Origin: Aporrectodea caliginosa
Taxonomy: Eukaryota > Annelida > Clitellata > Crassiclitellata > Lumbricidae
NCBI GenBank assembly: GCA_020284085.1
Contig: JACEVL010000080.1
Coordinates: 938,001 to 1,002,000 of the forward strand
Direction of reading: 5' to 3'
Length of the DNA: 64,000 nucleotides
The translations under genes were made by a program, and so were the position numbers. Every line of letters starts with the position of its first letter. Position 1 is the first letter of the stretch. Under the pieces are notes generated by a model. It was not told where the DNA came from. It searched no databases and saw nothing but the letters and a program-made list of their open reading frames with translations. Positions 27,521 through 61,637 of the stretch are shown piece after piece.

Positions 27521-27584
27521 ATGGAGACAACTCGTGCAGTCTTACTGGTTCTAGGCCTACTGTGCCTGACATGTCTTGCATCGG
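27521..27584 (+). CDS. Ig-like gene exon 1: signal peptide
   Basis: ATG in the context AGGAATGGAG opens METTRAVLLVLGLLCLTCLAS. This has a short polar N-terminus, a Leu/Val-rich h-region of about 12 residues and small residues (Ala-Ser-Gly) for signal-peptidase cleavage. A donor GTATGC follows after one base of the Gly codon (phase 1). The 30-nt exon at 33850, which begins GT, completes that codon. The first intron of 6.3 kb is mostly filled by an L2 LINE and two fold-back elements. No other ATG with a comparable leader was found upstream. Confidence 0.75.
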
Positions 27585-27741
27585 GTATGCTTTAAGTTTA
27601 TCTCATTTATGTGATTGTTCGAAACTGAAACTCATGTACTAACTAGCGCTTCAGTTGCTAATAGCCTGTTTTAATCATAATTAGGCCTATTTGAATTGTG
27701 TTTTGGTTACTTAATTTGACTTAAAATAGCTATTGTGTTAT

Positions 27742-28032
27742 ATTGTATTGTATTTATAAATTTATGTAGCGCCTGTCGCAGTGCACACCAATCAGAGGCG
27801 CTCCCAGTGCGAGAAACCCAGAGAAAAGAAAGTGGGCTTGAGACAACGAAAAGAGGCACTTGGACTACCAGTTAATAAGGCGGAATGTGCCAAAGAACGG
27901 CGCTCGTTCCATAGTGCAAGGTCAAAGAAAGCTCGTAATTTAGCCATAGCAGTTCTGGCTCGCGGGACAAACAGATCATGCCGGTTTTTTGAGCGTAGCG
28001 GGCGAAGAGAAGTGGCCAAGGTCGCTGTCGCG
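27742..28032 (-). mobile_element. L2-type LINE, 3' part of an interrupted copy
   Basis: The minus strand reads RPLRSKNRHDLFVPRARTAMA and continues to the family's closing residues SHWERL and a stop near 27790, followed by the AGGCGCTACATAAAT-type tail. The preceding part of the same element resumes at 30498, separated by the insertion at 28033-30497. Equivalent intact spacing can be seen in the copy at 38300-39420. Confidence 0.8.
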
Positions 28033-30497
28033 TTACAGAGTCTCCCCCCTAAAAGTCTCCCCCGGAGACTCTATTTCGAAGCAGATTCTACCTCCGGCGG
28101 ATCTGTTTCAGAATAAGTTCCCCCCGGATCTCCCGGGGAGAGAATATTTTATCCCCCGTTGAAATAAAGTCTCCCCGGGGAGACTTTATTTCAATTTTCA
28201 TTTTCAAACAATTTATTGTTCCCAGTTTTAATCAACAATTATGCAGTTATTGTCATAATTTTAAGAAACTAATTGTCCATATTAATTAATTTTAGCAAAT
28301 AATAAGCACAGTGGAATATTTAAAACAATCTTTATTAAGTATTAGCAACATAGAAACTTAACTCGCGTTCTCCTGTCTTTGGCGCCAATGTGAAGCAAGT
28401 CCCCACTACTGACACAGAATGAATCAGATTTCTCTCGTACACGACATTTCTCGTATGTAGAATGTATCCTGATGGATATTCTTTTTGGTAATATAATTAA
28501 ACAAAGCTTCACATTCAGCCTTATCCATGAAAATAATTTTGAACTGTTTCACAACGTATTACTTGTTAATGCAACTTGTTGCCAATATAATACTAACTAA
28601 TATTGAATCCATTGAGATCATCTAAGTCTAAGCAGAAAATGAACTTGAGCTACGAATAATTGTTGTACTTCGGCTTAACGACACTTTTTCATATCGAAGA
28701 TGATTAGTGTCGGAGGCAGAAAGCAACCTCGTACTCCACGTTTATATTGCGACCGAGCCACCCGCAGCTACGAATAATTCGTGGTGGTCTGCCCTTTATA
28801 GTCAACCAATTAACTTTGTTCTAGCTTTTGCTACCTACGCGAGCAAATAACATTCCATATAAGCCGAATAATTCCATTGTTCAACAAATGCTTCAGTAGT
28901 CTTTATCTCAAGCCTGTACAGGCTTCATGGACTACAAGGCTTTATTTTCTTTAATTGATATTGGCCTATTGCCTATAATTGTGTGATTGCCTAATCTTCA
29001 TCAATGAATGCCAGAAAACAAAGGGCAAGCTCATATCAGGAAGCCAGTACTTTATTTATAATCACTGGTTATGACTTCTTTAGTAATAATCTGACACCAG
29101 CAAACAATAATAAACAACGAATATATTAACCAGATGAATGGATGAATGGTAGGCCTAATCCGCATAAAAGGAATCACTTAAAATGAAGTGAAAGCTCATA
29201 ATGGTTGATCCCGGTTGAAGGGTAGGTCTAATTCGCATCATGAATCGCATTGAAGCCATGGCGTGCTAGCTCGTATCGGGAAGCCAGTACGTTATAGTTA
29301 TTCCCATGCATTGTTTCTGAGTCCTTTTAAAACTAATTAGCTGGACTGGTACATCTGACGCTAATAATCTTGAACGACCACTATCAAACACAAATTTCAG
29401 TGGTAGATCTTCCCCGCAAAGAATCAAGGTGACTCTAATTATCGCTACCTGGCATAAGATACACAATTACACATCAATCAATGAATGGGATAGGGATTAC
29501 TGATCACAGAATCGTTTCAGAAACCAGTGCTAACTAGCACCGTAAAATGTCTACTTTCAGTCCGAACCATTTTAATTATTTATTTCAGAAAATTTATATA
29601 GCGCCCCTTCAAGGATGCCTACTCAAAAGCGCTCCCAGCCCAACCCCGGTCGAACAGGACAGTCTTAAGAGTACTGAGAAATGAGGCAGAGTTGCCAGCA
29701 GGTGTCAGACGAAACATGCATGGTAGGGAGCCCATTCCAGGTTGAAGGGCCCGCCACGGAGAAGGCGCGACGCTACCTGAGAGCAGTCCGCGAACGAGGA
29801 ACAATGAGCTCAGCCTGTGCAGCCGAGCGGAGAAAGCAACGGCGCTGGACGCATGTGGTGGAGCAGCAGAGCTCCCGCAAGTACGGAGGGGCTAGACCCT
29901 CAATACAGCGCCGGACCAAGACAGAGATTCGATACACAATACGCTGTGGGTAAGGAAGCCAGTGGAGCACGTCCTTCATGTATTCAGAAACCCGCCCAAA
30001 CCTCAGAATGCGGCCAGCAAGGCGGGCGGCAGTGCGCAGGACCCTATTCAGGGACCCGGTCCGGCAGGCGGGAAGTCCATCATATATGGCGCTACAGTAG
30101 TCGAGCCGTGAGACTACAATGTGTGTAATCTTTCCACTGCGTTTTAAATATACAAACGCGCCCGACATCCTAGTGGTGTCATACAATGCTACATTTTACT
30201 CCTATAAAACATTTATTTAACAAATTTCTTATTTCAGTTCATTTTTATATGTCCAATTCAACCAATAAACACAAACGTAATTTATTTAAGAAAATGTACA
30301 TTTTAAATAATATTTAAAATTATATAGAAAAGGAACCGAAATATAGAGAGGGGACGATTTTTAGTAGAGGAAGACTTTGAATCGTAGAGGGGAGATTCTA
30401 TTTCAATGGGGGAGACTTTGTTTCGATACAGAGTCTCCGGGGGGGAGACATTATATCAGCCGGGGGAGACTCTGTTTCGAAGGGAGACTTTATATCG
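28033..30497. mobile_element. Fold-back element with GAGTCTCCCCC arms, inserted in L2
   Basis: The left end (28033-28200) and right end (about 30348-30497) are inverted relative to each other. Both are made of irregular units with GAGTCTCCCCC, AGACTCTATTTCGAA and related words. The outermost inverted match is GCTGTCGCGTTACAGAGTC (28024) against GGTGTCACGATATAAAGTC (right end read inverted). The insertion splits an L2 LINE frame. The interior holds AT-rich DNA with two loose direct repeats (GGAAGCCAGTAC at 29039 and 29279) and a second LINE fragment. No transposase was found. I could not define a clear target duplication. Confidence 0.65.
29595..30190 (-). mobile_element. L2-type LINE 3' fragment nested in the fold-back element
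   Basis: The minus strand gives VSRLDYCSAIYDGLPACR, LHWLPYPQRIVYRISVL, GLAPPYLRELC, VPRSRTALR and, after a frameshift, LKTVLFDRGWAGSAFE and a stop at 29619. A GGGGCGCTATATAAAT tail follows at 29600. These are the thumb and C-terminal part of L2-like reverse transcriptases. It differs in sequence from the host L2 copy, so it was inserted separately. Confidence 0.85.
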
Positions 30498-32340
30498 TGA
30501 CACCGGCAGGCGTATAAGTTCACGGAGATATTTTGGAGCTGGACAGTATACGACATGTAGATTAATGTAAGAACCTTGAGTTGAATCCGAGCAATAAGAG
30601 GGACCCAATGAAGGTGGTCAAACATGAAAGCAGAGGTGTGGGATGAGCGAGAAAGTCGGGCAATTAGTCTGGCCGCAGCATTTAGAACAAACTGAAAAGG
30701 AGAGAGACGAACTTTTGGAAGTTCAACCAAGAGAGAATTACAGTAATCAATTCGAGAGCAGATGAAGGCATGGACAATTAGGTAAAGACAGAGGAGGAGA
30801 CGAAGCGTCGGATTAATCTAAGCCGCCTCAGTTGGAAGTTAGAAGATCGCGTAGCATTGGCAATATGTACAGAAAAGGTTAGGGTGCTGTCCAGGACTAC
30901 GCCAAGGTCTCGAACATTGGAGTAGAAAGCGAAGGACGGAAATCTCTCTGCAAGAAGAAAGAAATGAAGCAAGTTTCGAGAGAGAGCATCAATCGGCCTG
31001 TAAGAGCAAGCTGAGCTGGGTGTCTTTCAATCTGCTCTAACTTAAGCCAAATAAGATGCAGCGCATCTGGTTCGGCGCTCACCAACAGCTTCTGAGCAGA
31101 GGGTGTACCATGAACAAGCGCCTGTACATCGTCAGCATAGAGGTGACCAGTTGAGTGTTTAGAGAACATGGCTGGAATGTCGGCCGTTTATAAGAGGTAG
31201 AGGAGAGGAATCAGAACAGAGCCCTGAGGGACACCATATTTGACCAAGACCCAGGGAGTTCTAGAGTCACCACAAATAGCCATTTGAGTACCACCAGTAA
31301 GGTAAGAACGTAGCCAGAGAAGAGGAAGGCATCTGATGCCAAAGGAGTCTCGAGGCGTTGCAGTAAAATGTCATGGTCTACCATGTCAAAGGCAGCAGAG
31401 AGTTCAAAGAGAGCCAGCAGTTTAAGTTGAGATCTATCTACAGCAGAGTAGATGTCGGAAAACAGGGAGAGGAGAACAGTTTCAGTGGAATGATGAGCTC
31501 TGAAGCCTGATTGACTGGGAGTGAGAAGTCCTGACTGTTCAAGATAAAGGAGAAGTTGTATAGAGACAAGCCGTTCAAGAGTCTTGGAAAGGAAGGAAAG
31601 GTTGGAGATGGGGGGTTAATTCTGGCAGAGGTTAGGATCCAAGTTGAGTTTCTTGAGGGTAGGGTAAAAAGAGCTTCAGACAGAGACCTATTAACTAAAT
31701 TCAGTAAAAACGGAGCAGTGTCATCAACAATATCAGCAATAATAAATGGATGAAAGGGGTCCAGTTCACAAGACTTTAAGTTTAGAGGAAACGAGTAGAC
31801 GTCGTAGGTCAGTTTCCAGAATCGGTCGAAATCCATCAAGAACGGAATCAGTCGACGCAATGAAAGGCGGAGGCGAATCAGCGGTCGAAGCACGAAGGTC
31901 TTCCTCCATCTTGATAGAAATCATTGTGCGGAAATCGCTGGCTGAGAAGAGCTTCCCATAAGACGAGAGACGGATGACCATCATGAACGGAATCAGTCGA
32001 CGCGACCATAGTCGTTTTGGGTTTTCTCATTTCGTATGACCAGGTTTCCAGTAGGCTTTCTCCTTCCGATGGTAGAGCTGGTGGAGAGCACGAAGTTGTG
32101 ATATCCAGGCCTGTCGATCAGCCGGATCCTGTGGTGGGTTGCTTCAATTTACGTTCTGACGTAATCGAAATTTGAAAAGGAAGCTCGAGGAAAGTGATGA
32201 TCTTCTAGGTGAAGATTAAAATCGCCCAGGATCAGGAGCTGGATATTTCTGGTGACAAGGCATTCGAAAACAGAGGAGAACTAGTCGAAGAATTTTCCTG
32301 TAGTGGCGTCGGAGCCGGGCCTGTAGATGGATAGCCTAGT
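30498..32340 (-). mobile_element. L2-type LINE, 5' part with endonuclease remnant
   Basis: Reading down the minus strand: a YRPGSDATT region and LLILGDFNLHLE at about 32230-32205 (the GDFN motif of the AP-type endonuclease); later SCELDPFHPFI, LSAAFDMVDHDILLQRLE, a decayed palm, HLYADDVQALVHG, RDLGVVLDSTLTF and LHWVPLIARIQLKVLTLIY. The frame then runs into the fold-back element at 30497. Several frameshifts are present. It is the only LINE in the window in which I can see an endonuclease motif. Confidence 0.85.
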
Positions 32341-32546
32341 AGTGTGGTGTACAATTGTATATTGCATAACAGAATACACACTCACAAACTTTATAATCAA
32401 TATTTTAGACAGCATTTTCAAGTTCCAAGCCTAACGACAAGAGACAATAGTACTAATCACAGACCAATCCACATAACGACGAAATAATAATTATCGCATT
32501 AGCCCTAGTGCTTGACGCGTATAGGCCTACGTCCGACGATAAACAT

Positions 32547-33321
32547 GGTGTCACGACAACTCGTCGAACGACATTTCGTATACGACACTTCGTCGAGCGA
32601 CATTTCGTCGAACGATATTTCGTCTACAAAGTTATTTGATATTGTCACTTTAAAATGGAACCTGGATTGATGAAAAAAACAGTTTCCCGAAATGGAAGTG
32701 GGATTGATGAAAACATTCCTGTGTTGAAATAGAAGCTGGATTGATCGAAATTATTTTTTCCGTAAATAGAAGCTGGAAATCAACCTGGATGCATGAATGA
32801 AAATAAGTTTCCATTCAATAGAAGCTGGATTGATGAAAATAATCTTGTCAGTAATTAGAAGCTGGATTTCTGAGAATATATAGCACGTTTTAGCGAAACT
32901 ATAAGAAAGCGGCCTCTGTTGATTAGCCGTAATGGATACAGATACACTTGTAGATGAAATGTCAGAAATCCAGTTTCCCGAAATGGAAGTGAGATTGATG
33001 AAAGCATTCCTGTGTTGAAATAGAAGCTGGATTGATCGAAATTATTTTTTCCGTAAATAGAAGCTGGAAATCAACCTGGATGCATGGATGAAAATAAGTT
33101 TCCATTCAACAGAAGCTGGATTGATGAAAATAATCGTGTCAGTAATTAGAAGCTGGATTTCTGAGAATATATAGCACGTTTTAGCGAAACTATAAGAAAG
33201 CGGCCTCTGTTGATTAGCCGTAATGGATACAGATACACTTGTAGACGAAATGTCGTTAGACGAATTGTCGTAGACGAAGTGTCGTTATACGAAATGTCGT
33301 TCGACGAGTTGTCGCGGAACC
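32547..33321. mobile_element. ACGACATTTCGTC fold-back element, copy 1, perfect 9-bp TSD
   Basis: 775 bp starting GGTGTCACGACAACTCGTCG and ending with the complement, TCGACGAGTTGTCGCGGAACC less its first base. It is flanked by GATAAACAT at 32538-32546 and 33322-33330. Both arms are arrays of the 13-15 bp unit around ACGACATTTCGTC. The core consists of AAGCTGGATTGATGAAAATA repeats. About 291 bp of the core are tandemly duplicated (CAGTTTCCCGAAATGGAAG at 32680 and 32971), each copy ending at TTGTAGA(C/T)GAAATGTC. No protein is encoded. A 9-bp TSD suggests mobilisation by a Mutator-like transposase. Confidence 0.85.
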
Positions 33322-33849
33322 GATAAACATACATGGACGTATGCAACTTACCTTTGAAATTTTACTTATGCCTAGTCCGAGAAATTTGGACGTTTGGACA
33401 TTTGTTACGGACGTGAAAACGGTCATTTGGGCGTTAACAAAAAACACTGTGTAGAGTGTAGACCTAGTTATACCTCTTTAGAAAGGCATTTCGAATTTCG
33501 GTCCGGCGTCTCAGACGGTTTTTGATTTTGACCACAGTTCCCATTGAAGCAAACAAGAATTGATGTCGTATGCGCTATGATCACAGTGCTTTAGCAGTCA
33601 TGAGATTATATTAAGCAATGTCCCAATTAATTTGACATGTGCTGATTCGACTTGTTTACGCGATCAAAACAGGGCAGTGCAAGACGTTGAGAAGCAAAAC
33701 TCATCTGATTGTGTTGCTGAAAAGACAGGCCTTTTTTAGATAATGAGCCCCGACTGCAGAACCGTGCCTCTGCAGACTGCTATGTATAGACTTGCGATAA
33801 GCATGCATTTACATTGAACTTCTAACCATACATCGCCTGACTTTTGTAG

Positions 33850-33879
33850 GTTTATCAGAAACCAAGGCAGATCAGTCAG
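33850..33879 (+). CDS. Ig-like gene exon 2: 30-nt linker
   Basis: After the acceptor CTTTTGTAG, 30 nt encode (G)LSETKADQS(G), then a GTAATT donor. Phase 1 on both sides joins the signal-peptide exon to A1 without interrupting the frame. Very short exons after a leader are known in extracellular receptors. The call rests on splice-site and phase fit, so it is moderately sure. Confidence 0.6.
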
Positions 33880-34369
33880 GTAATTTCAAATTTCATAGAA
33901 AGTATCGTCATAATTTAAACCGAAGTACATGTAGTTTGTGCGAATTAATTTATCATGATCACGATGATCAGAAACTTTTATCACCGTTGACATCGTTGTT
34001 TAGCCTACATTGGCGTCTTTCTTAAATTGTTCTGTTATCTTGATTTTAAATGTTGAAATGTGATTTATCCTGACCAAACAATGTCATGGTACAGCTATCC
34101 TCCGTAAATACATAACACTCAGGGCCTACATTCAGTAGAGAGATATTTGTCGTTCAGCGCCAAGATACCGAATTTTTCTATTTCTTTTGAGTTTAAATCA
34201 CAGCTCAGTGTAGACTCAATCTAGTAAGCTTAGTCATCTTGTATATTTAAGTAAATGTTGCTAATATAGATCCTTAGTTTTTTTCTTCAGAATTAAGCGT
34301 TATAATTCGGGGCCTCCTTGCATCCTCTTTAAGTTAGAGGTCAAGTTAATGTGACGATGTGGTTCACAG

Positions 34370-34762
34370 GTACTTTTTCCGTGGAAGACTATAGTGATTG
34401 TTTGGAGAATCATACAATTAACGTGGTCAACTATGTCGCAGAAGTTGGAACGGATGTAGCTATCCTGTCACCAATCTCACCTCCTCCAATCGGTATGAAA
34501 TGGTTTAGTCTCAACTTTGATGGCGAACTACGACGTCCAGTTAGCAGAGAAGTTGGCCGTGTGGGTTCTACCAACTCGGAGAAGTTTCTGGAGACCTACA
34601 ACACTTCTTGGCAGAATCAGGGGCTGAGAATCCGGAAGGTTCACCTCGCTAACGCTGATTTATTGCGAGTGTTTGTTGGAGAAAATGGAACAGGGGAAAC
34701 TGCAGGAAGAGGTTCTGAAGAATGCCAAGCCTTTGATGTAGCGATCACTCTCATGACTTTCG
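34370..34762 (+). CDS. Ig-like gene exon A1: V-like domain without the disulphide pair
   Basis: A 393-nt phase 1-1 exon (acceptor TTCACAG, donor GTGAGA) encoding about 131 residues. NVVNYVAEVGTDVAILSP and IGMKWFSL fit strands B and C of a V-type Ig domain, with the core Trp present. Where a canonical domain has Cys the sequence has Ser (LSP), and the F-strand position reads LLRVFVGEN without Cys. Two other cysteines occur (YSDC near the start, EECQ near the end). Three sequons (NHT, NTS, NGT) suggest a glycosylated extracellular domain. It ends DVAITLMTFG, shared exactly with A2. Family unrecognised beyond Ig-like. Confidence 0.75.
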
Positions 34763-34914
34763 GTGAGAATTTCTAGGAAGTCGATGCATTAACCAATTTG
34801 CAACGATTTATATAATTAAGAGAACGCTCTTACATAACATAATAAGGGTTTTAAGTGTTTCAGAAGACGTGTGGTTTGTGTTAGAACCAATGCAGATTAA
34901 TCTGGAACGCTTAA

Positions 34915-35070
34915 TAGCCCAATATTCCTAGCTGCCAGAAGACGTTCTACAAGTCTAAAATCTGTTTATAGCTCTCATTTGCACTTTCTCCAGTTTCTTT
35001 CATGCCCTGTTTCAGGAATGGATTACAATTTAGTACTAATATTGGTATGGATTCCATACTTTGATGCAGT
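34915..35070 (-). mobile_element. CR1-like LINE, C-terminal part (piece 3 of 3)
   Basis: The minus strand, read from the hAT MITE junction at 35078, shows KVWNPYQ and, after frameshifts, KKLEKVQMRAI, corresponding to the C-terminal VWxPY..KKLExVQRRAT region of CR1 elements. It continues the fragment at 35896-36411 on the other side of the MITE. Confidence 0.6.
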
Positions 35071-35078
35071 ATTCCAAC

Positions 35079-35887: not shown

Positions 35888-35895
35888 ATTCCAAC

Positions 35896-36411: not shown

Positions 36412-36619
36412 AGTGATACGGCTACCGGTTCTACCTCACTCACACTTGACTGAACACCAATCAGATGGTAAGCCCGCCCCTATTGTTCTAAGCCCCGCAT
36501 CCCATTGTTCTAAGCCCCGCCTCCTATTGTTCTACTAAGGTAAGCCCCACCCCCATTGTTTTAATATATAAATGGGAGGAGGAGGAGCCACGGGCTGCGA
36601 GATGTAACCATTGTCTGAG

Positions 36620-38051: not shown

Positions 38052-38299
38052 CATAAATTCATGCCCGAGACAAACTACCTTCTAACCTGTTAACTGTTTC
38101 TTAGTTTTAGATATTTTTTTAATTGTGTCTGTGCGCGCTGTGAACTACTAAAATATTTCATAATCAATTATGAAACACAAGTAAAACAAAATTCTTGCAT
38201 CTGTGGTGGAGGCCCCTATGTGGTGGAGGCCCCTGTGCACTGGCACATAGTGGAGATTCTTCTCCAGCGTATTGAGACCTCTTATGGGCTTAAGGGCCT

Positions 38300-39420
38300 C
38301 CCCTTTGTTGGTTTCGCTCATACCTATCCGAACGAACCCAAATGATTGTTACTGGTGACTCCAGAACCCAATGGGTCCACGTTAAACTGGGTGTCCCTCA
38401 AGGCTCCGTTCTCGGCCCTCTCTTATTTATTTTATATACGGCTGACATCTCCTCTCTTTTTCCGATCTGTGGTGCTGCTGGTCATCTCTTCGCTGATGAT
38501 GTGCAAGCATTTGTCCATGGTCCTTCGTCATCGCAGTTGCTTTTGGTCGGGAGTATTCAATCTCTCTCTAATCATCTCCACTCTTGGATGTCATCTAATC
38601 GCCTCTCCCTTAATGCTTCTAAGACTCAATTCATTTGGTTTGGTATCCCTCAGCAGTTCCATAAACTTGATTTTGCTCTCCTCTCTGAAAAGTTCCCTCT
38701 CTTCTCTTTCTCGTCAAGTGTACGCGATCTGGGTGTTACCCTTGATAGTTCACTTACCTTTACCGAGCACATCTCTAATCTCACACGCTTCTCCTATTTT
38801 CACTTAAGGCGTCTCAGGGTCATTCGTCGTTCTGTCTCCTCCTTCATATTCACAACTTTAGTTCATGCTTTTGTATCTTCTCGGATTGACTACTGCAATT
38901 CCCTTCTTGTTGGTCTTCCTAAGGTTCTTCTCTCTCCTCTTCAGTCGGTCCTCAACACAGCTGCTAGACTGATAGCCCGCCTTCCCCGGTACTCTCACAT
39001 CTCTACCTTTATGTTTGATGAACTTCATTGGCTCCCTCTGCATGCTCGTATACAATTTAAAATCCTCTCTCTGATCTTCAAGGCTCACAAGGGTCTTGCC
39101 CCTCAATATCTGGTTGGTGTAATTCTTCGGCATCACTCAGCTTCCTCCCACCGTCCACTTCGTTCCTGCAATAGACTTGACCTCTTGGTTCCCCGTAGTA
39201 GAACTGCTATGGCTCAGGCTCGTTCCTTTGTTTCAATTGGTTCCTCTCTTTGGAATGCTCTTTCTCCTTCTGTTTGCTCTAAAATTCTCTCTGGCAGTCT
39301 ATCTTCTTCTTTCGCTTTTCTCAAAACCTGCTTGTTTTCGCGGGGCTTAGCACACTGGGAGCGCTTCTGAACGGTTCACCCTACGAGAGGCGCTTTACAA
39401 ATACTTAAATACGATACGAT
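38300..39420 (+). mobile_element. L2-type LINE, 3' half with a long open frame
   Basis: 38342-39370 is open for 342 codons. It includes KLGVPQGSVLGPLLF, the catalytic region as HLFADDVQAFVHG (FADD rather than YADD, which is tolerated in this family), SLNASKTQFIWFG, RDLGVTLDSSLTF, RIDYCNSLLVGLPK, LHWLPLHARIQFKIL, GLAPQYL and LFSRGLAHWERF with a stop. The tail is GGCGCTTTACAAATAC plus (GATAC)n. Absence of stops over this length suggests a fairly recent insertion. It is 5' truncated before the palm, so it cannot move itself. Confidence 0.9.
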
Positions 39421-40866: not shown

Positions 40867-41229
40867 AGAAATACGAGTGTGGCTTTACATCAAAGCCTCA
40901 GAATCCGAAGGCGGGTGACACGTTGATCCTGAGCTGTAGTGTCATAGTCAACGGAATGTGGAATGCATCGCTGATCTTCCGCAATAACTATGACAAAAGC
41001 GAACTCATAGGAGAAACAAAGACCTGTGGAATTCAGCGAAGCCTTGGTTCTAAGATCTGCAGCTCAGTCAGAGTCAAGGCTGAAACGGTTATCCTTGCTT
41101 ATAGCTGTCGCCTCGAATTTCCTTCAGATGGAAGGCATGTCCCAAACAAACCGATGTTTCTGAGCTCAAAATGGACGGCTGCGTTTGATAAGGAGGTGCT
41201 TTGCAACCTTCCTAAAATCTACTTGGACG
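40867..41229 (+). CDS. Ig-like gene exon B1: six-cysteine Ig-like domain
   Basis: A 363-nt phase 1-1 exon (acceptor CTCTGTAG, donor GTAAGT) of about 121 residues. YECGFTSKP opens it, then GDTLILSCSVIVNG (strand B with Cys), WNASLIFRN (one sequon), KTCG, SKICSSVRVKAETVILAY and SCRLEF (strand F with Cys), ending VLCNLPKIYLDG. Six cysteines are conserved in place with B2: one Ig-type pair plus probably two extra disulphides. The usual Trp of strand C is not at its normal place. It follows A1 after a 6.1-kb intron and precedes C1 by 373 bp. Confidence 0.85.
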
Positions 41230-41602: not shown

Positions 41603-41986
41603 CTATTCCATCTGACGTTACGCTGCTGTGTAACAATATGCCTTGCGGGGAAACAGTGGTAGTTAACGACACAGTAACATGCGTGGCACACGGGTATCCG
41701 CAACCAGTCTTTGACCTTCGCATCAGAGATGCTTCAGCAAAAACAGGAAACAATTCTGAGAGTCAGGAAGTAGAATACGAAAACCGATTCTTCATGGATA
41801 CGGATGAGGAAGAAAGAGACGACGGTTTCGGTGGCGATTATACCAAAGATGCAACTGAAGTGGAGATTAAAGGACATGAGGACTTCCGAATTGGGCCGAA
41901 GAACGTGGGGCACATAGAAATAACCTGTAACGTATCGAATGCACTCGGATGGGGATACAACGCGCTGGTCCTAGAAGTCAAAATAA
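41603..41986 (+). CDS. Ig-like gene exon C1: C-x5-C leader and I/C2-set-like domain
   Basis: A 384-nt phase 1-1 exon (acceptor GCTTTTAG, donor GTAAGT). It begins IPSDVTLLCNNMPCG, then NDTVTCVAHGYPQPVFDLRI (strand B Cys, and the GYPxP motif common before strand C in I/C2-set domains), an acidic insert (MDTDEEERDDGFGG) and ITCNVSNALGWGYNALVLEV (strand F Cys, then the N.LG motif). Four cysteines and sequons NDT, NNS and NVS. Its homologues are C2 (46998) and C3 (61374). The next base pair of the split codon is supplied by A2 at 45066. Confidence 0.85.
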
Positions 41987-45065: not shown

Positions 45066-45467
45066 GTAAGCCTACGTTTCTCGTGAAAGATTCTAGTTGG
45101 AAGAAGCACCAAATTAACTTGGTCAACTACGTCGCAGAGGTTGGATCGAACGTACTTATCTTGTCGCCAATAATACCCGCTCCCATCGGAATACGCTGGT
45201 TCAGCCTAAATATGGACAGCGAACTACCACCTCCTTCCGGCAAGGAGGTCGGTCTTAACAATTCGAGTCACTTTGAGAACTTTCAGACAGGTTACAACAC
45301 ATCGTGGGAGATTGTTTTTGACTATGATAGACGCAGGCGATGGCTGAAAATTCAGAAGGTTCCTCTTGGTTACACTGATGTATATAGAGTGTTTATTGAG
45401 AACAGGCAGGCAGGAAACGCTGATGACAAAACTTCCTTCGATGTCGCGATCACTCTGATGACATTTG
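45066..45467 (+). CDS. Ig-like gene exon A2: cysteine-free V-like domain
   Basis: A 402-nt phase 1-1 exon (acceptor ATTCATAG, donor GTAAGA), clearly homologous to A1: VNYVAEVGSNVLILSP, IGIRWFSLNMDSELPPPSGK, a YNTSWE segment and FDVAITLMTFG. It contains no cysteine at all. The strand-B position is Ser and the strand-F region reads VYRVFIENRQAG, so a V-type fold without the core disulphide is the simplest reading. Sequons NSS and NTS. Compared with A1 it has a few extra residues (FDYDRRRR). The intron to B2 is only 673 bp, showing the compact original spacing. Confidence 0.8.
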
Positions 45468-46140: not shown

Positions 46141-46506
46141 AGAAACACGAATGTGGCTATGTATCGAAGCCTCCAAATCCGACAGAGGGCGACGAATTCG
46201 TCCTCAACTGCAGCGTCATAGTCAACGGATGGTGGAATGCATCTTTGGTGTTCCGCAATGCCTACGACGGAAGTGAAATCAGAGGAGAAATGTCCGAATG
46301 TAACGATCAGCCAAGCACCGGTACCACCAAGATCTGCAGCACAGTCAGGATCAAGGCTGAAACGGACATCCTCGCTTATAGCTGTCGCCTCGAATTTCCT
46401 CCGATTGAAAGACTTGATCTGGAAAGCCCTTTGTTCCAAAATTCAAAATGGCCGGATGCGTTTAATAAAGAAGTTGTTTGCTATCTACCCGAAATCTACT
46501 TAGAGG
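46141..46506 (+). CDS. Ig-like gene exon B2: six-cysteine Ig-like domain
   Basis: A 366-nt phase 1-1 exon (acceptor GCAATTACAG, donor GTTAGT). It aligns end to end with B1: HECGYVSKP, FVLNCSVIVNG, WNASLVFRNAYDGSE, SECND, KICSTVRIKAETDILAYSC, FNKEVVCYLPEIYLEG. All six cysteines are kept. It has sequons NCS and NAS, one more than B1. Codon-level divergence with domain features retained suggests the copy is, or recently was, under selection. Confidence 0.85.
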
Positions 46507-46997: not shown

Positions 46998-47511
46998 TTA
47001 TTCCATCGAGTGTTGCGTTCTTCTGCAACGATACCAATTGCCCTGTAACGATCTTCCCACTACGATTCGCTCTATGATCTTAACTGGGGGTACTTATGTC
47101 TCTGCCCGTACTCTTAAGACCTTCTTTTCTCTCGGGGATTATCGCATTGGGAGCGCCTCTGTCCCTCTGATTAGGTCGTACTGAGTGAGGCGCTTTAGAA
47201 ATCCATATATACAATGCACCACAATGCATGCGTGGCTCACGGGTATCCACCGCCCATCTTTGATCCTCGCATTTGGCACATTTTCGTAGGACCCTGCAAT
47301 AAATCTAGGGATCCAGACTATCAAGTGAATTATGACAACCACTTCTTCATGGACACGGTTGATGGCCAATTAAAGATCAGATTAGAGGCTGTGCGACAGT
47401 GTGCAAGTTACCGGATAAGTAAGGCAGACTTGGGACAAGTTTAAATAACCTGTAACGCATCGAATGCACTTGGCTGGGGATACAACGATTTGATACTAGA
47501 AATAAAATTGA
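46998..47511 (+). pseudogene. Ig-like gene exon C2, broken by LINE insertion and a stop
   Basis: The acceptor (TTGTTAG) and donor (GTAAGT) are kept. The 5' part reads VIPSSVAFFCNDTNCP, equivalent to the C-x5-C leader of C1. The frame is then lost in an inserted L2 3' end (about 47043-47213), resumes with CVAHGYPPPIFDPRI and YDNHFFMDT, and hits TAA just before ITCNASNALGWGYNDLILEI (Glu codon in C1). If included in the mRNA it would truncate the protein. Phase 1-1 borders let it be skipped. Confidence 0.85.
47043..47213 (+). mobile_element. L2-type LINE 3' end inserted in exon C2
   Basis: Contains LKTFFSLGDYRIGSAS and GGGAGCGCCTCTGTCCCTCT, then GTGAGGCGCTTTAGAAATCC, the terminal formula of the L2-like family (compare 39360-39400). 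Its borders replace about 25 bp of the exon as judged against C1. No clear target duplication. Confidence 0.8.
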
Positions 47512-52530: not shown

Positions 52531-52564
52531 GCCATTTAAAAACGCTAGGCATTGTGTGTTATAT

Positions 52565-53208
52565 GGTATGCGATTCGTCAACGGACTGTTCGTCAAGGAC
52601 TGTTCGTCAAGTGGACGTTTCGTCAACGGACGATTCGTCAACGGACTGTTCGTCAAACGGAATCGATTATTAATTCTCGTTGGCCAATAAAGGGATTGCT
52701 AGCCCATTAAGCAGGTGCGCAAAATACATGCAATTGAAGTTGGATTGGTGATAATAACTTCCTTAAGTAGAAGTTGGATTGATGCAAATAATTTTTTTTA
52801 ACTGGAAGTCGGATTGATGAAAATAATTCTTGCTATTTAAGCACAGAATTAGTTTCATCAATCCAACTTCTATTTCAGCAAAGAATTATTTTCATCAATC
52901 CAACTTCTATTTACAGAAAGAATTATTTTCATCAATCCAACTTCTATTTAAGGAAAGAATTATTTTCATCAATCCAACTTCTATTTAAGGAAAGAATTAT
53001 TTTCATCAATCCAACTTCCAGTTCAAATTGAGAGCGCGTAATGTGTGCAATAAAATGGCTTACATAATCTCCCCCTCCATGCGAGGACATAATCCCCACC
53101 AGCTAGGATATAATATAATATATTTTGATCCCACTGGAAAAAGTGTATTATTTCCCCTGGACGAACAGTCCGTTGCCGAATCGTCCGTTGACGAAACGTC
53201 CCCGAACC
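52565..53208. mobile_element. CGTCAACGGAC fold-back element, copy 1
   Basis: 644 bp from GGTATGCGATTCGTCAACGG to GAAACGTCCCCGAACC. Arms are arrays of the unit CGTCAACGGACNNTT on the left and its complement on the right. The core has GGCCAATAAAGGGATTGCTA and many ATTTTCATCAATCCAACTTC units. Flanking GTTATAT occurs on both sides (52558-52564 and 53209-53215). Same family as 55682-56400, inverted. Confidence 0.8.
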
Positions 53209-53674: not shown

Positions 53675-54190
53675 GTAATTTAAAATCAGTCTTCACTAAT
53701 AATACTCTTAGCAAAGTGCTGAGAAATTGTAGGTCTTCCTCCATGTGCTAATCTATATTCAAACACACGATTTCAATAATGTGAGAAATTTTCTAACAGC
53801 AAACCTGTGGCTTTTGATATTTTACCTGATTGAATAAGACAAATTATTAGTATAGTTTTAACACATAAGTTATTTTAATAAAATGAATCTGGGGACGCCT
53901 TTTATGGAAAATATTGTTTGGCCATAGCCTTCTCAAAAGACAAGAGATTGCTCTCTACATCAGACTCTTCAAGTTTTGATATTAGTTTAACTGTTTAACA
54001 GGAGACGTAAATCGAAACAACTCTGTCTCGAACCGGCATTGTCTCGGCATACACACCAACCAGACGCTTTAATCCTAGCTCATATCGGAGCTGTCGTTTC
54101 TTCTCCATGTCATATTGTCTGTTTTCCTCCATTTTCAATCGAACCTTTTCTCCTCTTTTCCACTTCAAGCTGGCTTTCTAAAAACTGCAC
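53675..54190. other. No gene recognised
   Basis: AT-rich intronic DNA after the linker exon; nothing supportable. Confidence 0.45.
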
Positions 54191-54193
54191 CAT

Positions 54194-54195
<2 letters not shown>

Positions 54196-54263
<68 letters not shown>

Positions 54264-54310
54264 GTCTCTGTCTGTCTGTCTCTCTCTATCTCTCTCTGTC
54301 TCTCTCTCTG
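54196..54310 (+). repeat. (CT)n microsatellite
   Basis: More than 30 CT units, then CTGT-interrupted repeats. It yields Leu-Ser and Arg-Glu repeat frames that are not genes. Confidence 0.95.
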
Positions 54311-55210
54311 TATTGTAATGTCACGTGTTCTGGAGAAAGTAACTGACAAGGGGTTTCACAAATATTTAATGTGAATCCCTCTTTCCCAAAACCATAACTT
54401 GATACTTATATAATCCTTTTAAGGACGACACTTTAAGAGAAACCATTGATCCAACGCAAAGTCAACTGTAACGTCAAAGTTTGACGTCATGTCACATGGC
54501 GTCATGTAGGGAACAACCGGAAATCGCTTCGGCCATTTGCCCCGGCCGGATATCGGGTTTTTCGGAACTATTCGCCTCGGCAAATAATACCCACGCAAAT
54601 ACCTACAATTTTTGGAATTCGATCAATCTCAAGATTATAGTTACAATTTACAAATAAATTATACAACTGAACTAAATTTCTGCAACAATTTAAGTATTTA
54701 ACCGAGAATCGCTATTTAGCGCTGAGATTGGTTGTCATTGTTCTAGCCCTTCGTACTATATTACATGTAAAAAACGGTACTCGGTTCGTACCCGGATCCG
54801 GCAAATAGTACATCCAAATACTCGGATTTGCTACCCGGTAGAAAATGTCTACCCGGTTGTTCCCTGCAAGACTAACCTTATGAAACAGAAACTAAGTTGT
54901 ATGCAAACATTTTCAGGAATACTCGCCAAAGGAATTTTTATATCTCTTCCAGTTTGAAAGGTACCGTATGCATTGAGAACCGCTATGTTGGTAAAAATTA
55001 CAGGCTATATTATATGGGCGTATACGAAATTTGAAAACGTCTAAACCATGTTCGATTTTTCTTTAACTTTGCATTTTTTATCAGTATAGCCAAGAGAAAC
55101 TCTTTGGAGGTTGGCCAGTGCCACTGATATTTGAGAACTTTGTTTTTTGGGCGGACACCCGACCTCACAGGCGTAGAACCCAAACGCCAGTCAGGATGAC
55201 ATCCAAATTG
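54311..55210. other. No gene recognised
   Basis: 54540-54850 contains short CCGGATATCGGG, GGATCCGGCAAATAGTACAT and TACCCGG words that may be a decayed repeat. No coding signal. Confidence 0.45.
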
Positions 55211-55214
55211 TAAT

Positions 55215-55660
55215 TGTAATTGTAATTGAACATTTGTATAGCGCCACTCACAGATTCAGAGGCGCTTTCGACCCAGGGCTCTAACAAATAAGATAGTCCT
55301 CAGGCGTTTCCGAAACACATGAAGAGAAAGGCTGAGGAGCTCAAGACGCAATTCATGCGGAAGATGGTTCCAACTGGAGGGGCCGACATAAGCAATGCTT
55401 CTGGATTGAGCAGTTGAACCACGCATGCGAGGGACAACCAGAAGGCCTCTGGCGGCAGAGCGCAGAGCAGAGCGACCAGGGAGTGTAGAAGCCGATGTAT
55501 TTGAAGGAGCTACCCCGAGTAGAGAGTTGCACATAAGTGTGAGAATTTTGAACTGAATGCACTGGGGCACAGGAAGCCAGTGAAGAGTTTCCCGAATGAA
55601 GGAAGATATGTGACAATACTTCGGGATCCCAAATAAGTCTGATCTGCTAGACAAAGTCGT
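55215..55660 (-). mobile_element. L2-type LINE 3' fragment
   Basis: The minus strand has YCHISSFIRETLHWLPVPQC, IQFKILTLMCNSLLGVAPS, LRSAARGLLVVPRMRG, VGPSSWNHLPHELRLELLS and a stop at 55256, then AGCGCCTCTGAATCTG, GGCGCTATACAAATG and an (ATTACA)n tail. Its 5' end is at the fold-back element at 55682. Confidence 0.85.
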
Positions 55661-55681
55661 TCAATGACTCCTATGGTTTGG

Positions 55682-56400
55682 GTTCTAGGACGTTTCGTCA
55701 ACGGACGATTCGTCAACGGACTGTTCGTCCAAAGGAAATAATATACTTTCACCAGTGGAATCAAAATATATTATATAATTATATCCTAGCCGGCGGAGAT
55801 TAAGTCCTCGCTTGGGGGAGATTATGTAATCCATTTTCTTGCACATATCACGGGTTCTCAATTTCAACTGGAAGTTGGATTGATGAAAATAATTATTTGC
55901 TTAAATAAAATTGGGATTGGTGAAACTAATTCTTTGCTTAAATAGAAGTCGGATTGATGAAAGAAATTCTGTGCTTAAATAGAAGTTGGATTGATGAAAC
56001 TAATTCCTTGCTTAAATAGCAAGAATTATTTTCATCAATCCGACTTCTAGTTTTAGAGACAACTATTTTCATCAATCCAATTTTTATATGAACAAATTAT
56101 TTTCATCAATCCAACTTCTATTTAATGAAGCGTTATTATCATCAATCCAACTTCAATTGTATGTATTTTGCGCACGCTTAAAATAGCAATCCTTTTATTG
56201 GTCAACGAGAATTAATTATCGATTTCGTTTGACGAATAGTCCGTTGACGAACAGTCCGTTGACGAATCGTCCACTTCACGAACAGTCCGTTGACGAATAG
56301 TCCGTTGACGAACAGTCCTTGACGAACAGTCCGTTGACGAATCGTCCACTTGACGAACAGTCCGTTGACGAATCGTCCGTTGACGAAACGTCCGCATACC
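55682..56400. mobile_element. CGTCAACGGAC fold-back element, copy 2, perfect 9-bp TSD
   Basis: 719 bp, flanked by ATGGTTTGG at 55673-55681 and 56401-56409. Short left arm GGACGTTTCGTCAACGGACG and long right arm (about 56230-56400, some ten CGTTGACGAA..GTC units). The core of GATTGATG / CATCAATCC repeats changes orientation near 56020, so much of it can self-pair. Opposite orientation to 52565-53208. Frames across the right arm are repeat shadows. Confidence 0.9.
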
Positions 56401-56482
56401 ATGGTTTGGACATGTGGAGAGAATGCCAGTTATCGGACTAATCAGGCTAATTTATCGTTTTTGCTGTCTAAATAATTATTTA

Positions 56483-57493
56483 GGGTGACACAAAAGTTCG
56501 TTCACCGTTTTCAAAATGCGATGTCTCAGTAACGGCTGCATATTTCTTTATAATATCTTATCAATACATACATAAGTCACACGAAAGATACTGGTAAGAA
56601 TTTGAGTATGATCCGGTCCGTGGTTGCCATTATTTATAAGAAAATGTAAAGACCACCAGTTTTTGCGGAAAAAACTGCGTTCATCAAATTAACGCAGTAA
56701 AGGAAATGTGTAACCTCGTACACAATAAGACACTGTTGTTACCTAGGACATACAGACGTAGGTTATTAGCGTACAGTATCTCATTTCTGCTTAATGACAG
56801 CACTGACTCTATCCGGCATAGACTGGATCAACGTCTGAAGTGTTCTAACTGCTATCGATCTCCACGCAAATTCTTGCGACGCCAGTTTCTCCACTTCAGA
56901 TCGTTCACCATGTAGCGTCGAATGGTTTCTCCACTACCACGCTGATTATGAACTTTAAGTTGATTTTCAATGCGTCTCACACCATGTCCGCGCTTGTACT
57001 TCGTTGCACTAATGAGTCGCTTGGCTGCATTGGACAAAATCTTGGATCGTCCACTGCGTTTCCTGTCAATCAATGTGTCGTTGACTCTGCCGCGAACAAC
57101 CCATTTCGTTACCCAGCGCTTTGAACGCTGCAACTTCTTTCCTGTTACGGAATGTGAGTATCCTTCACTAGCTAATATTATTGCTTGAGCACGAAGCTTG
57201 ATATAATTAATTTTACCCATTTTAAAATAATAAACAACATAAATTATAGGCAACCTAATCACGCGGAAGAATATTGGCTTCAGACATACACAGCGCAGGC
57301 TATTATTGGCCCAGCGCCGGCTGCTTGACGTCATATCCAGGCACGAGCTAGCACGAGCTAAAAAATGCGTGATGTCATTTTACGATGTCTCATATGTGAG
57401 TCTTGTATACGCTGGCAAAATATTTCCGAAATCTGAATCATATTGACCCAGATATTTAAGTTTGAAAACGGTGAACGAACTTTCGTGTCACCC
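56483..57493 (-). mobile_element. Tc1/mariner-like element, internally deleted, TA target
   Basis: 1011 bp with 33-bp terminal inverted repeats starting GGGTGACACAAAAGTTCG (left) and, inverted, GGGTGACACGAAAGTTCG (right), which differ by one base as far as I can read. TA lies directly outside both ends. It encodes only the DNA-binding part of a transposase on the minus strand (see 56852-57220); full elements of this type are usually longer. Non-autonomous but possibly mobilisable. Confidence 0.9.
56852..57220 (-). pseudogene. Mariner-like transposase, N-terminal DNA-binding part only
   Basis: From MGKINYIKLRAQ the frame gives two helix-turn-helix-like segments: AIILASEGYSHSVTGKKLQR with SKRWVTKWV, and ISATKYKRGHGVRRIENQL with SGETIRRYMVNDL. 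They are joined by the linker DRKRSGRSKILS, a GRPR-like AT-hook position. Stop after RRKNLRGDR. The catalytic DDE/D domain is absent. An ATG 38 codons upstream is in frame but lies in less conserved sequence; the one at 57220 fits the family start. As it stands it could only bind TIRs. Confidence 0.85.
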
Positions 57494-57495
57494 TA

Positions 57496-58045
57496 TATAT
57501 ACATAGCATTTCAATACCTATGTTCGGAATTGCTCTGATTAGTTCGATAATTAATTTTTGCTGTACTCACCTTGGATCGGCGAAAATGCGTAGCCCGCGG
57601 CTGTGATTTTATTTTTACGCTTCAGAAGCGTTCTTCAAAAGCGTCTTCAATTTTCCTCGGTAAATCAACAGCAGCAGCATCTGTCGACGAAAACCCTACA
57701 CTCAACATAGGACTGCAATGTCACCAGATTTCTGAAGACTGCACAATTGCGCCCTTTCAAAATAGCGAACACCTGCGCGAATAGCAGCGTCAACGCATTT
57801 CTTAATTAATTATACAGGGCCTATACATTAAAGAATATACTTACTTACATAGCTGAGAACCAACGTTGCCGCTATTAAGCACGTTCAATATATACAGTGT
57901 GATTGGCAATAAAGCTACCCCTGAAACTGTAATATGTAACAACGAAATATTCGTAGGCCTAAATGTAGAGGGCTAAGCCTGTTGAACTACTGGGTGTGTT
58001 TTTCCGAGAAGATTTAAAACTCGATGACCAAGTGACGATCATTTT
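57496..58045. other. No gene recognised
   Basis: Mixed sequence with no domain in either strand. An acceptor-like or donor-like site alone is not enough to call an exon. Confidence 0.45.
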
Positions 58046-58049
58046 GAAT

Positions 58050-58660
58050 GCTTGCAGCCAACGCCTATGTCTGCCATAAGTCCTCCGATCTGAAGAAATC
58101 TTCCTCTTCTTCTTTCCCTTCCGTTAGGTGTGCGCCGACGATGAGGTTTGTATACAGATCTATACTGCATTTCTATCTGTCTCTGATTGTATCCAGGGCC
58201 GTTCTCATGTCTATGTCTTGTTCCTTAAAGATCTTGTCTTCCGGATTACCTCATTACGAATCCTATCTAGTGTGGTCCTTCCCATTATTCTTACTCAGCT
58301 CATTTCCGCCAAAGAATCTTCCCGTTGTCCTCCTTCCGTAGGCACCAACACTCAGATCTATACTGCCTTATCAGTAGCCTATATAGTATATATACTGGAG
58401 TGAAAAAGGCCCTATACAGTTCTAGGCTATATTTTCTCGTTTTCCCACATCCTGTTCAATCTGACAAATATCGCTGACGTCAGACTAATCTGCGTTTTAT
58501 GTTCTTTTACATTAGCCGTATTCCTTTATTAATCCTCCCATGCAGGTACACAAACTCGTTGACTTGCTCCAGTTCGTCGACATCTAGTCTCACCTTCAGT
58601 TCTTTATGTTGTTTTCCGGTTGTTATTGTCTTGTTTTCCCCCTATTTATTCTCAGTCAAA
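58050..58660 (-). mobile_element. RTE-like LINE, C-terminal fragment
   Basis: The minus strand reads KELKVRLDVDELEQVNEFVY and LHGRI, matching the LEQV..F.YLG..I motif that follows the palm in RTE-type endonuclease-reverse transcriptases. Further on, GRTTLDRIRNEVIRKTRSL matches the conserved C-terminal DRIRNE.IR segment. Frameshifts separate the pieces. Confidence 0.65.
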
Positions 58661-59716
58661 ACCTTCTACTATACTGCCATGTTCCTGTCTTTCCGTGCAT
58701 GTGAGCGCCCAACCCAGACCGATAAAGCACTAGTCGCTGTCTTATAGCCTGCATCGAAGTCTGCGAGATTTGAACCCTTGCCTCCGAAATATTCCACAAA
58801 GAAATGTCAGCTGCATGATCGACTCTTTCCGACCGAAATATTATCCAGTAATTCAGTGCAAATTCTTTATACAATTGCATCTGCGCTTGCTAATATTAGA
58901 TTTCGAATCGAAAATGTCTCAATATTGCGTTTTTTCCTCGTTCAAACTTTATTCAGTTTAACTTCAAAGCAACACGAACTCTTTGTCTAGTCCTTCTCCC
59001 GCAAATCTTCCTCTCTGCCCCCTGAAAGACACACCATCGACGTATATTAGGTGGACACAGCATAAGAGATTCAAGCTGAAGCCTGGCCATTTGCCATGCG
59101 TGACGTCACATGCACGCAAACGGCTAGCCGATAATAATCATACCATCGACGTTTATTGGATGCGTTATTTATATGAGGTCGATGATTGGATGGACACAGA
59201 ACCTATTATGATAATGAGCTCTGCCTGACGTCATGCATGGTAGAAAGTTAAGGTTTCACTTCACAATACAACCTTAGTTGTGCTATACTGTGTACAGTGT
59301 ACACCCATACACGTCGATAGAAGTTTATAACGTTTATTTTATGGTCGTGGACATAGAACGAGTATGCGCATATTACGAATATTAAGATTTTTAGAAATTT
59401 ACAAATACTGACGAATATTAAACTGGCCAAAGAATATTAATTTTTTTGTTTTTTAATTCTTCAAAATCCGGAAATAGTAGTAAACTATATTCATTGCCAC
59501 AAACTAGGTAGGCCTATCAGAGCTAGAACAAGAACAGTTACATGTTACAGTTACTCATCTTAATGATCTTATATCAGTTACTTCACTTAGTCTATTGTTT
59601 GAAGTCTCAATAGGCTACATGCGGTCCGATCATGCGGAATTCAAATTTTTGGCGCCCAAACGAACGACACCGGTACTAGGGTGGAGTGAAAAAGCAAAAA
59701 TTCTAGAACCTCAACG
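58661..59716. other. No gene recognised
   Basis: Several frames of 60-80 codons occur on both strands but none shows a family motif, and splice or phase signals do not link them to the Ig-like gene. Confidence 0.45.
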
Positions 59717-59718
59717 TA

Positions 59719-60066
59719 ATAGTGATAACTCGTTGCCTTTTGGTATAGTAAGTTATCATGTCAAATATTTCTTTAAAATTCGTTCTCTAAGATTTGCCCC
59801 AACGCGTTTTAAAATTTGACAATTTAATAAAAAATTACGAATATATAAAAATGTCAATAAATTTTTAAAATGTAATGCGCTGATTGTAATAGTGATAACT
59901 CGTTTCCATTTGATGTAGCCTAGTTAGTTATCAGGTTAAATATTTCTTTAAAATTCGTTCTCTAAGATTTGCCCCAACGCGTTTTAAAATTTAACAATTT
60001 AAAAAAATTGTAGAATTTATACAAATTTCAATAAATTTAAAAACATTTAATGCGCTAATTGTAATA
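59719..60066 (+). repeat. Tandem duplication, period about 170 bp
   Basis: AATAGTGATAACTCGTT occurs at 59719 and 59889. Both units share AAATATTTCTTTAAAATTCG and TTTGCCCCAACGCG, then a T/A-rich end with AATGCGCT(G/A)ATTG. Two units with moderate divergence. Confidence 0.85.
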
Positions 60067-60379
60067 GTGTTTAAGCATTTAATTATGACGTATTTAATGA
60101 CCATGCAAATTAAAATTAATAAAATGACTGTATGTCAGCAATATTAAATAAACAATAAGCCCTAAACATTATAAACAATCCCAACAGTTGTAGACTAGAT
60201 ATTATGTCACTAATTACTGAAAAGTGAGTCAATGCTCATTTATTTTATTCTGTTGATTGAACTCCAATTGAAATTCTGCTTTAGTATAAAAGGAAGGTAT
60301 TAGTTCCCGTGATTCCGATCTGGCAAGGATGAAACCATTTTTAGATGTTTGTCCAACAACAGCAGTAGATGCTTCATCT

Positions 60380-60904
60380 GATATCCTTTACGTTGTCTCT
60401 GTCCATTCAAGGATTCATCTAATTTAAGTCACTATTTAGTGTCATCAGTTGAGAAATAAACAGCAGAGTACAGGAAATAAATTTTTTAAAGTTATTTGAA
60501 TTTCTAAGTTATCCAAAAATACGAATTATTTTCTTTTCCGTTTTGTCCTCGTTTTTTTCCGTTTTTTATTATTTTGAATAAAACGACGTTTTTTTCCGTT
60601 TTTTATTTTGATTTTACCGTTTTTAACAACTATGTCCAAAACCTTCTGCCTGATCTGAAACTGAAAGAAAATAATAGTTGTAGATTAATGTTACCTGGTG
60701 TTTACTAATAAAGTTATGTTATTTGCTGATTAAAATTAAATTGTGTAAACAAGGTTTTTAATTTTAAATGCAGTTAAAGATGTAGCAAAGTACATTTATT
60801 TTCTTTTCCGTTTTGTCCCCGTTTATTTCCGTTTTTTTATTTTTTTGAATAAAACGACGTTTTTTTCGTTTTTTATTTTGCTTTCACCGTTTTTAACAAC
60901 TATG
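60380..60904. mobile_element. hAT-type MITE, rearranged copy of the 35079-35887 family
   Basis: 60380-60470 matches 35250-35340 (GATATCC.TTACGTT, TTCAAGGATTCATCTAATTT) and 60660-60790 matches 35650-35780 (GTTTACTAATAAAGTTATG, AAATTAAATTGTGTAAACAA). Two right ends are present (60590-60635 and 60860-60904), both finishing ACCGTTTTTAACAACTATG. A 5' truncation plus partial duplication is the simplest explanation. Confidence 0.75.
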
Positions 60905-61373
60905 AGTAAAATTGATTGTTTTTTACAAACAGTTTTCTTGTTATTTATTTTGGATGCAGGTTAATATGACGTTTATAGGGTCGCTTTTCCACTCACCATC
61001 TATATATAAACAAAATTACTGATGCAATCACATGTGTAATGCTTGGGCAAATTTATTACTAGACCCGCCTAGAATTTCGCCATTGGCAATGCGCCAAAAG
61101 ACACTTTCATGTACATGTACTATTAGTTTCGCGTCATTACTTGATGACGTGCAACTAATAGAAATCTACAAACTACAGGCCATTTACAACAGCAAACAAA
61201 TGCGCATACGGTAAGTAGTATGCTCATGGTTTCCACTAGAACAGTTTTCTTCTGTTATCTAAGACTGAGAATCGATCAGGGATAACTGATGACAACTATG
61301 ACCGATGTTCCACGTTATTAAATGTATGAATTCTGATAATATTGCAAATAATTTCCTGCAAACTTACTTTTAG

Positions 61374-61637
61374 GTACATTTCCTGACCACACATTTAATC
61401 TACTGTGCAATGGCGAGCTTTGCAAGGATTCCGTAAAAGTTGGACACGCATTATCCGTAACTTATATTGTCAGCAAACCTAAAACGTACTACTGCGAACT
61501 GTGGATAGATAATTCTGCGAAACCGGATTGTGGTTATACTTTGAGCGAGCGAGATGTCGGCCCAAAGTCGATAGTCATAAGAACCACCCATGATGAGGGG
61601 CCAGAAACTTGGAAACAAGACATCATGGTTTATGCAG
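61374..61637 (+). CDS. Ig-like gene exon C3: diverged C-type domain
   Basis: A 264-nt phase 1-1 exon (acceptor TACTTTTAG, donor GTAATC). HTFNLLCNGELCKDSVKVGH aligns with the C-x5-C leader of C1 (VTLLCNNMPCGETVVVND). Then comes LSVTYIVSKPKTYYCELWID, where the C1 strand-B Cys is replaced by Tyr and a Cys appears eight residues on. The closing part (SIVIRTTHDEGPETWKQDIM) lacks the usual strand-F Cys. It is shorter than C1 (88 against 128 residues). It is the last exon I can see, and its donor implies more exons beyond the window. Confidence 0.75.

What the first reader, a model, noticed from the sequence alone, without database searches (positions are those of the whole stretch)
27521..61637. 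Unrecognised multi-exon Ig-like receptor gene with an all-phase-1 duplicated A-B-C exon cassette
Signal peptide, linker, A1-B1-C1, A2-B2-C2, linker and C3 are all bounded by consensus splice sites in phase 1 with lengths divisible by three. Symmetric phase-1 exons are the classic condition for exon shuffling and for frame-neutral alternative splicing. The domain types match no named family I know (A without cysteines, B with six, C with a C-x5-C leader). A tandem-duplicated, highly glycosylated, secreted or membrane receptor in an invertebrate is a candidate immune or self-recognition system. Function is inference.
Basis: partly seen in the sequence, partly recalled or inferred. Interest (0 to 1): 0.88.

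Follow-up and report, generated by a model that had tools for sequence, protein, structure and literature searches.

The report
Unnamed annelid Ig-domain surface-receptor gene family
The window holds the first half of a large gene, one of a family in what looks like an annelid worm genome, that appears to encode chains of immunoglobulin-like domains held at the cell surface; it is real and I found no description of it, but any role in immunity or self-recognition is only a guess.

Summary
The multi-exon gene is real. A 1172-residue relative joins A1-B1-C1-A2-B2 exactly as predicted, on a contig too short for the introns. Corrections: C2 is dead (LINE-tail insert, in-frame stops); "C3" is another domain type (here D); A1 has two non-conserved cysteines; the C leader is C-x4-C.

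The window cuts a larger gene, about 91 kb as modelled. Beyond it lie A3, five tandem B-C exon pairs, a second D and a last exon ending in a tail-less hydrophobic segment, as in GPI-anchored proteins. Joined, 21 exons give 2188 residues without an internal stop. The 1.1-Gb genome has 23 B and 25 C matches on eleven contigs. Mitochondrial code and gene order suggest an annelid.

Model comparisons put A in the immunoglobulin fold and B in an Ig-like sandwich (FNIII not excluded). Selection is mainly purifying (333 of 334 pairs dN/dS below 1, median 0.38). Best reading: a lineage-restricted, CEACAM-like family of surface adhesion or recognition proteins. Immune or self-recognition function is untested.

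The parts
27521..27584 (+). Exon 1: signal peptide METTRAVLLVLGLLCLTCLASG (an in-frame ATG also at 27500)
   Evidence: region conserved at 69-92% DNA identity in four other gene copies, each with a GT donor at the same place
33850..33879 (+). Exon 2: 30-nt linker, phase 1
   Evidence: eight copies in seven regions, all 30 nt
34370..34762 (+). Exon A1: Ig-fold domain without conserved cysteines
   Evidence: fold from the model of A2 with relatives
40867..41229 (+). Exon B1: Ig-like sandwich domain with six cysteines
   Evidence: fold from the P0001 model
41603..41986 (+). Exon C1: Ig-like domain with C-x4-C leader and a second cysteine pair
   Evidence: sub-threshold Pfam Ig_PDGFR_d4 in 15 of 15 aligned C sequences, best E 0.0013
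45066..45467 (+). Exon A2: second A domain
46141..46506 (+). Exon B2: second B domain
46998..47511 (+). Dead exon C2: C copy with a LINE-tail insert (about 47047-47225) and in-frame stops
61374..61637 (+).

Best explanation
The window carries the 5' half of one member of a lineage-restricted multigene family in an annelid, probably a clitellate. As modelled the gene spans about 91 kb (contig C79, 965521-1056936) and encodes a signal peptide, a short linker, 18 Ig-like domains of four types (three A, seven B, six C, two D), each on one phase-1 exon, and a tail-less hydrophobic C-terminus. Shown: exon structure, relatives, copy number, constraint, and model matches of A (Ig) and B (Ig-like). Inferred: that all 21 exons are one transcript; that the protein is held on the outer face of the membrane by a GPI anchor; that the N-terminal A domain is the binding face and the B-C repeats a stalk, so that it works by adhesion or ligand binding at the cell surface, much as CEA-family proteins do. 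Because the exons are symmetric phase 1, domains can be lost (C2) or multiplied (five B-C pairs) without breaking the frame, and copies exchange segments.
Confidence: 0.58

Rival explanations
1. Histocompatibility or allorecognition receptors: copy-number-variable, allelic Ig proteins that tell self from non-self, the unknown molecular basis of annelid graft rejection.
For: Multigene Ig-like family with segment exchange between copies 0.9 Mb apart (A3-B3-C-B4 dS 0.01-0.03 against A1-B1-C1-A2-B2 dS 0.07-0.29; DNA identity). Annelid-type mitochondrial genome. Annelids are reported to reject grafts with short-term memory (PMC2248247, passages).
Against: 333 of 334 pairs have dN/dS below 1; no population data; the tail-less C-terminus has no signalling motif of its own.
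Confidence: 0.12
2. Splice-diversified receptor: B-C pairs and other symmetric exons are included or skipped to make many isoforms, as in arthropod Dscam or chelicerate sDscam.
For: Exons symmetric phase 1; five tandem B-C pairs; P0001 lacks a C after B2 and any B-C array.
Against: B4-B7 are 93-99% identical in protein, so choosing among them adds little sequence diversity; P0001 is not one of this genome's matched copies (identity at most 81%) and its gene may simply lack the array; no isoform data.
Confidence: 0.2
3. Pathogen-binding or decoy surface proteins diversified by duplication, like CEACAM or FREP families.
For: Recent copies, exon loss and segment exchange; CEACAM genes show duplication with corrupted exons and gene conversion (PMC2110893, passages).
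Against: No ligand test; mainly purifying selection.
Confidence: 0.25
4. Two genes: SP to D1 is one gene whose last exon was not found, and A3-(B-C)5-D2-last exon is another.
For: 52 kb between C2 and A3 in this copy, holding D1 as the only strong match.
Against: No second SP-like exon found there by DNA search; in copy C79a, A3 lies 2.4 kb after C2.
Confidence: 0.25
5. Decaying or non-coding relic.
For: Dead C2; a dead C in C723 and a truncated C1 in C85.
Against: 2188-residue open model, constraint, apparent transcript in a relative.
Confidence: 0.03

Closest known systems
CEA/CEACAM family (mammals)
   Same: Leader exon, IgV-type N domain exon, IgC-type A and B domain exons, GPI-signal exon, recent duplication, corrupted exons in some copies (PMC2110893, passages); that the CEACAM N domain lacks the cysteine pair is recalled
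   Different: No CEACAM among the Pfam or PDB sequence matches; four domain types, A-B-C unit, B-C array, extra cysteines in B and C; annelid
Chelicerate sDscam / arthropod Dscam
   Different: No FNIII family matched in P0001 by Pfam; alternative promoters and splicing not shown; the array is internal and its B copies nearly identical
Hydractinia Alr family
   Same: Multigene Ig surface family of an invertebrate, 41 members (PMC11999971, passages)
   Different: Matches on eleven contigs here; tail-less C-terminus; allelic polymorphism unknown
FREP (snails)
   Same: Invertebrate Ig-bearing multigene family, variable through point mutation and recombination (PMC11999971, passages)
   Different: No fibrinogen domain matched in P0001

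Membership tests
Immunoglobulin superfamily | Ig beta-sandwich fold, domain A | tested here: met
Immunoglobulin superfamily | Ig beta-sandwich fold, domain B | tested here: inconclusive
Immunoglobulin superfamily | Canonical cysteine pair | tested here: inconclusive
   Candidate pairs invariant in C (15 of 15) and B (18 of 18); none conserved in A (13 copies)
Immunoglobulin superfamily | Pfam Ig model above its curated cut-off | tested here: not met
   Window C1: Ig_PDGFR_d4 18.4 bits against cut-off 27; membership rests on fold, not sequence
CEA/CEACAM | Sequence kinship to CEACAM domains | tested here: inconclusive
   No CEACAM listed by sequence in Pfam or PDB; limited libraries
CEA/CEACAM | GPI-anchor signal or TM exon at the end | tested here: inconclusive
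   Last exon encodes a hydrophobic tail-less end; no predictor or assay
Dscam / sDscam | FNIII repeats after the Ig domains | tested here: inconclusive
   No FNIII family for P0001 or the window exons by Pfam, but some rows for B are FNIII-type receptors
Dscam / sDscam | Mutually exclusive splicing or alternative promoters | not testable with these tools
   no RNA-seq
Hydractinia Alr | Transmembrane protein with signalling tail (recalled) | tested here: not met
   No residues after the hydrophobic end in P0001 or in the last exon
FREP | Fibrinogen domain | tested here: not met
   none matched in P0001; the window gene's later exons were not all scanned
Allorecognition system | High allelic polymorphism linked to fusion or rejection | not testable with these tools
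   one assembly only

The most novel reading that the evidence does not exclude
This family is the polymorphic, recombining Ig receptor system behind annelid graft recognition: N-terminal A domains bind partners on other cells, genes differ between individuals in sequence and in number of B-C pairs, and exchange of segments between copies keeps producing new combinations.
Probability: 0.1. Interest if true: 0.9.

Novelty: new variant of a known kind. Interest (0 to 1): 0.5.

Why it matters
Annelids are reported to reject tissue grafts with a weakly specific, short-lived memory (PMC2248247, passages), and the listings and passages I saw name no annelid receptor for it. A compact family of duplicating Ig-like surface genes gives a concrete candidate list and makes the question testable by resequencing individuals and by expression in coelomocytes. 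It also shows how symmetric phase-1 exons let a receptor gain (B-C) and lose (C2) domains freely.

Tried and rejected
Mobile-element origin: reverse-transcriptase and transposase-like pieces lie between the exons, but the exons match none. Pfam and PDB by sequence: single exons and P0001 gave nothing above cut-off; profiles gave weak Ig names for C (NCAM E 0.26), nothing for B, and CD2 at E 0.49 behind unrelated chains for A. The C-terminal half of P0001 as query found only itself among 5722 candidates. Host contamination in bacterial genome contigs (a LINE protein as query) and exon A in viral contigs: none. The full-length P0001 model was poor (pLDDT 36). Diversifying selection: 10 of 78 overlapping 20-codon windows have pN above pS, strongest in A2 111-130 and C1 31-50; not tested for significance. 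An early echinoderm guess, from TAGGCCTA counts (17), was dropped when mitochondrial AAA read as lysine. Whole-genome counts of the A and D exons were sought and not obtained.

Full report
WHAT IS THERE. The internal exons have lengths divisible by three, GT/AG borders and phase 1 on both sides; the join has 755 residues and no stop. C2 at 46998-47511 fails: 514 nt, an insert whose pieces match three other places in the window, one of them the end of a reverse-transcriptase frame, and stops in frame.

INDEPENDENT EVIDENCE. A search of 5.8 billion proteins (7316 candidates) returned one relative, P0001 (1172 aa, 4189-nt contig, source label "lgn"). It is 75% identical over 81% of the query and joins A1, B1, C1, A2 and B2 at the four predicted junctions. 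In the window these exons are separated by introns of 373 nt to 6.1 kb, so that contig is very probably from mRNA; the tool does not say so. Its identity to this genome's matches is at most 81%, so I take it to be from another species. After B2, P0001 has no C. By eye it continues with four D-like domains, a stretch I could not assign and a hydrophobic end; of these only the third was matched by sequence to D1 (31%) and D2 (36%). A profile search (5351 candidates) added 11 relatives of one exon each: nine A (P0002-P0010) and two C (P0011, P0012). All 11 continue past the exon end with GK or SK, as reading through the same donor would give; their DNA was not seen.

THE WHOLE GENE. The window is G000:C79:938001-1002000 of a 1.098-Gb assembly. 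Fetched DNA downstream holds A3 (1037828-1038226), five B-C pairs (1040037-1052030), D2 (from 1053300, with a donor giving an end at 1053578) and a last exon (1056826 to a stop) matching the P0001 tail. Between C2 and A3 a profile search of open frames of 45 residues or more found D1 and two weak opposite-strand matches (E 0.1 and 0.058) and nothing else. The 21-exon join is 2188 residues without an internal stop, with 32 N-glycosylation motifs and 78 cysteines; the part in the window has 12 motifs in 755 residues.

THE FAMILY. P0001 as query gave 44 exon matches (39 of 117 candidates scored, so a lower bound). B2 gave 23 matches (38 of 38 scored; none with a stop), C1 gave 25 (26 of 26; one with a stop, the window's C2). 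Both sets lie on the same eleven contigs: C79 (two places 0.94 Mb apart), C723, C2822, C3001, C85, C1205, C360, C665, C623, C113 and C337; the last and a few others are partial matches. I annotated seven regions on six of these contigs (C79 twice, C723, C2822, C3001, C85, C1205); the other five contigs were not annotated. In the seven regions, the window's included, there are 13 A, 18 B and 15 C intact exons. Left out of those counts as broken: window C2, an extra C in C723 and the truncated C1 of C85. The signal exon is found in five regions and the 30-nt linker in eight copies. C2822 is probably an allele of C79a (dS 0 to 0.11 over six exons), so loci are fewer than contigs suggest.

EVOLUTION. 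Trees (midpoint-rooted) group copies by position: all A1, all A2, A3 with P0009 and P0010, all B1, all B2, and the array B4-B7; P0001 falls in the matching classes. The layout therefore predates the gene copies. Of 334 exon pairs with defined values, 333 have dN/dS below 1 (median 0.38, range 0.08-1.07; two pairs undefined); the exception is B3 of C79a and C79b, dS 0.03. Pooled pN/pS is 0.40-0.68 in seven groups. C79a and C79b differ by dS 0.07-0.29 over A1, B1, C1, A2 and B2 but 0.01-0.03 over A3-B3-C-B4. DNA identity is 97-98% over 37.8-41.5 kb and 93% over the next matched 1.5 kb, against 78-91% for the corresponding matches upstream: recent segment exchange or duplication, or less likely an assembly fault.

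ORGANISM. COX1 on contig C4544, read by eye against recalled conserved positions, fits AAA=Lys, ATA=Met, AGA=Ser. The order nad3-S-nad2-cox1-N-cox2-D-atp8-Y-G-cox3 (tRNAs by ARAGORN; protein genes recognised by eye) is, from recall, that of earthworms and many other annelids; that the COX1 looks clitellate is also recall. No tool named the species.

MECHANISM AND NOVELTY. Shown: gene, exons, relatives, constraint. Inferred: one transcript, surface attachment through GPI, binding by the N-terminal A domain, B-C repeats as stalk. The nearest analogy is the CEACAM family, by layout only. Six searches of an open-access library aimed at such a family listed no paper that I recognised as describing it; two more were for comparators. 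Most subscription papers are not in that library.

Noticed in passing
window 2615-3356, - strand: Part of another gene: an LDL-receptor class A domain (E 1.4e-8) and nearby an open frame with a hydrophobic stretch and PPPY-like motifs and no Pfam match.
   Followed up: partly
window 15941-17200, 24592-25482, 38294-39370: Reverse-transcriptase pieces of LINEs (RVT_1; the middle one below its cut-off).
   Followed up: partly
window 56852-57379, - strand: Helix-turn-helix frame that looks like a transposase remnant ('transposase' is recall).
   Followed up: no
window 52600-52740, 55670-55740, 56200-56400: Tandem 15-nt units such as GTTGACGAACAGTCC, in both orientations, shared by several places.
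   Followed up: no
G000:C79 37824-41454 against 1037670-1042425: 97-98% identity between two family clusters 0.94 Mb apart, in contrast to 78-91% over matches in their 5' halves.
   Followed up: partly
G000:C70:3435453-3436790 (L050): A copy of mitochondrial COX1 scoring the same as the one on C4544, inside a large contig: nuclear insertion or misassembly.
   Followed up: no
G000:C85 399997-400428 (L048): C1 truncated and followed at once by a second linker exon, as if two gene copies were fused.
   Followed up: no
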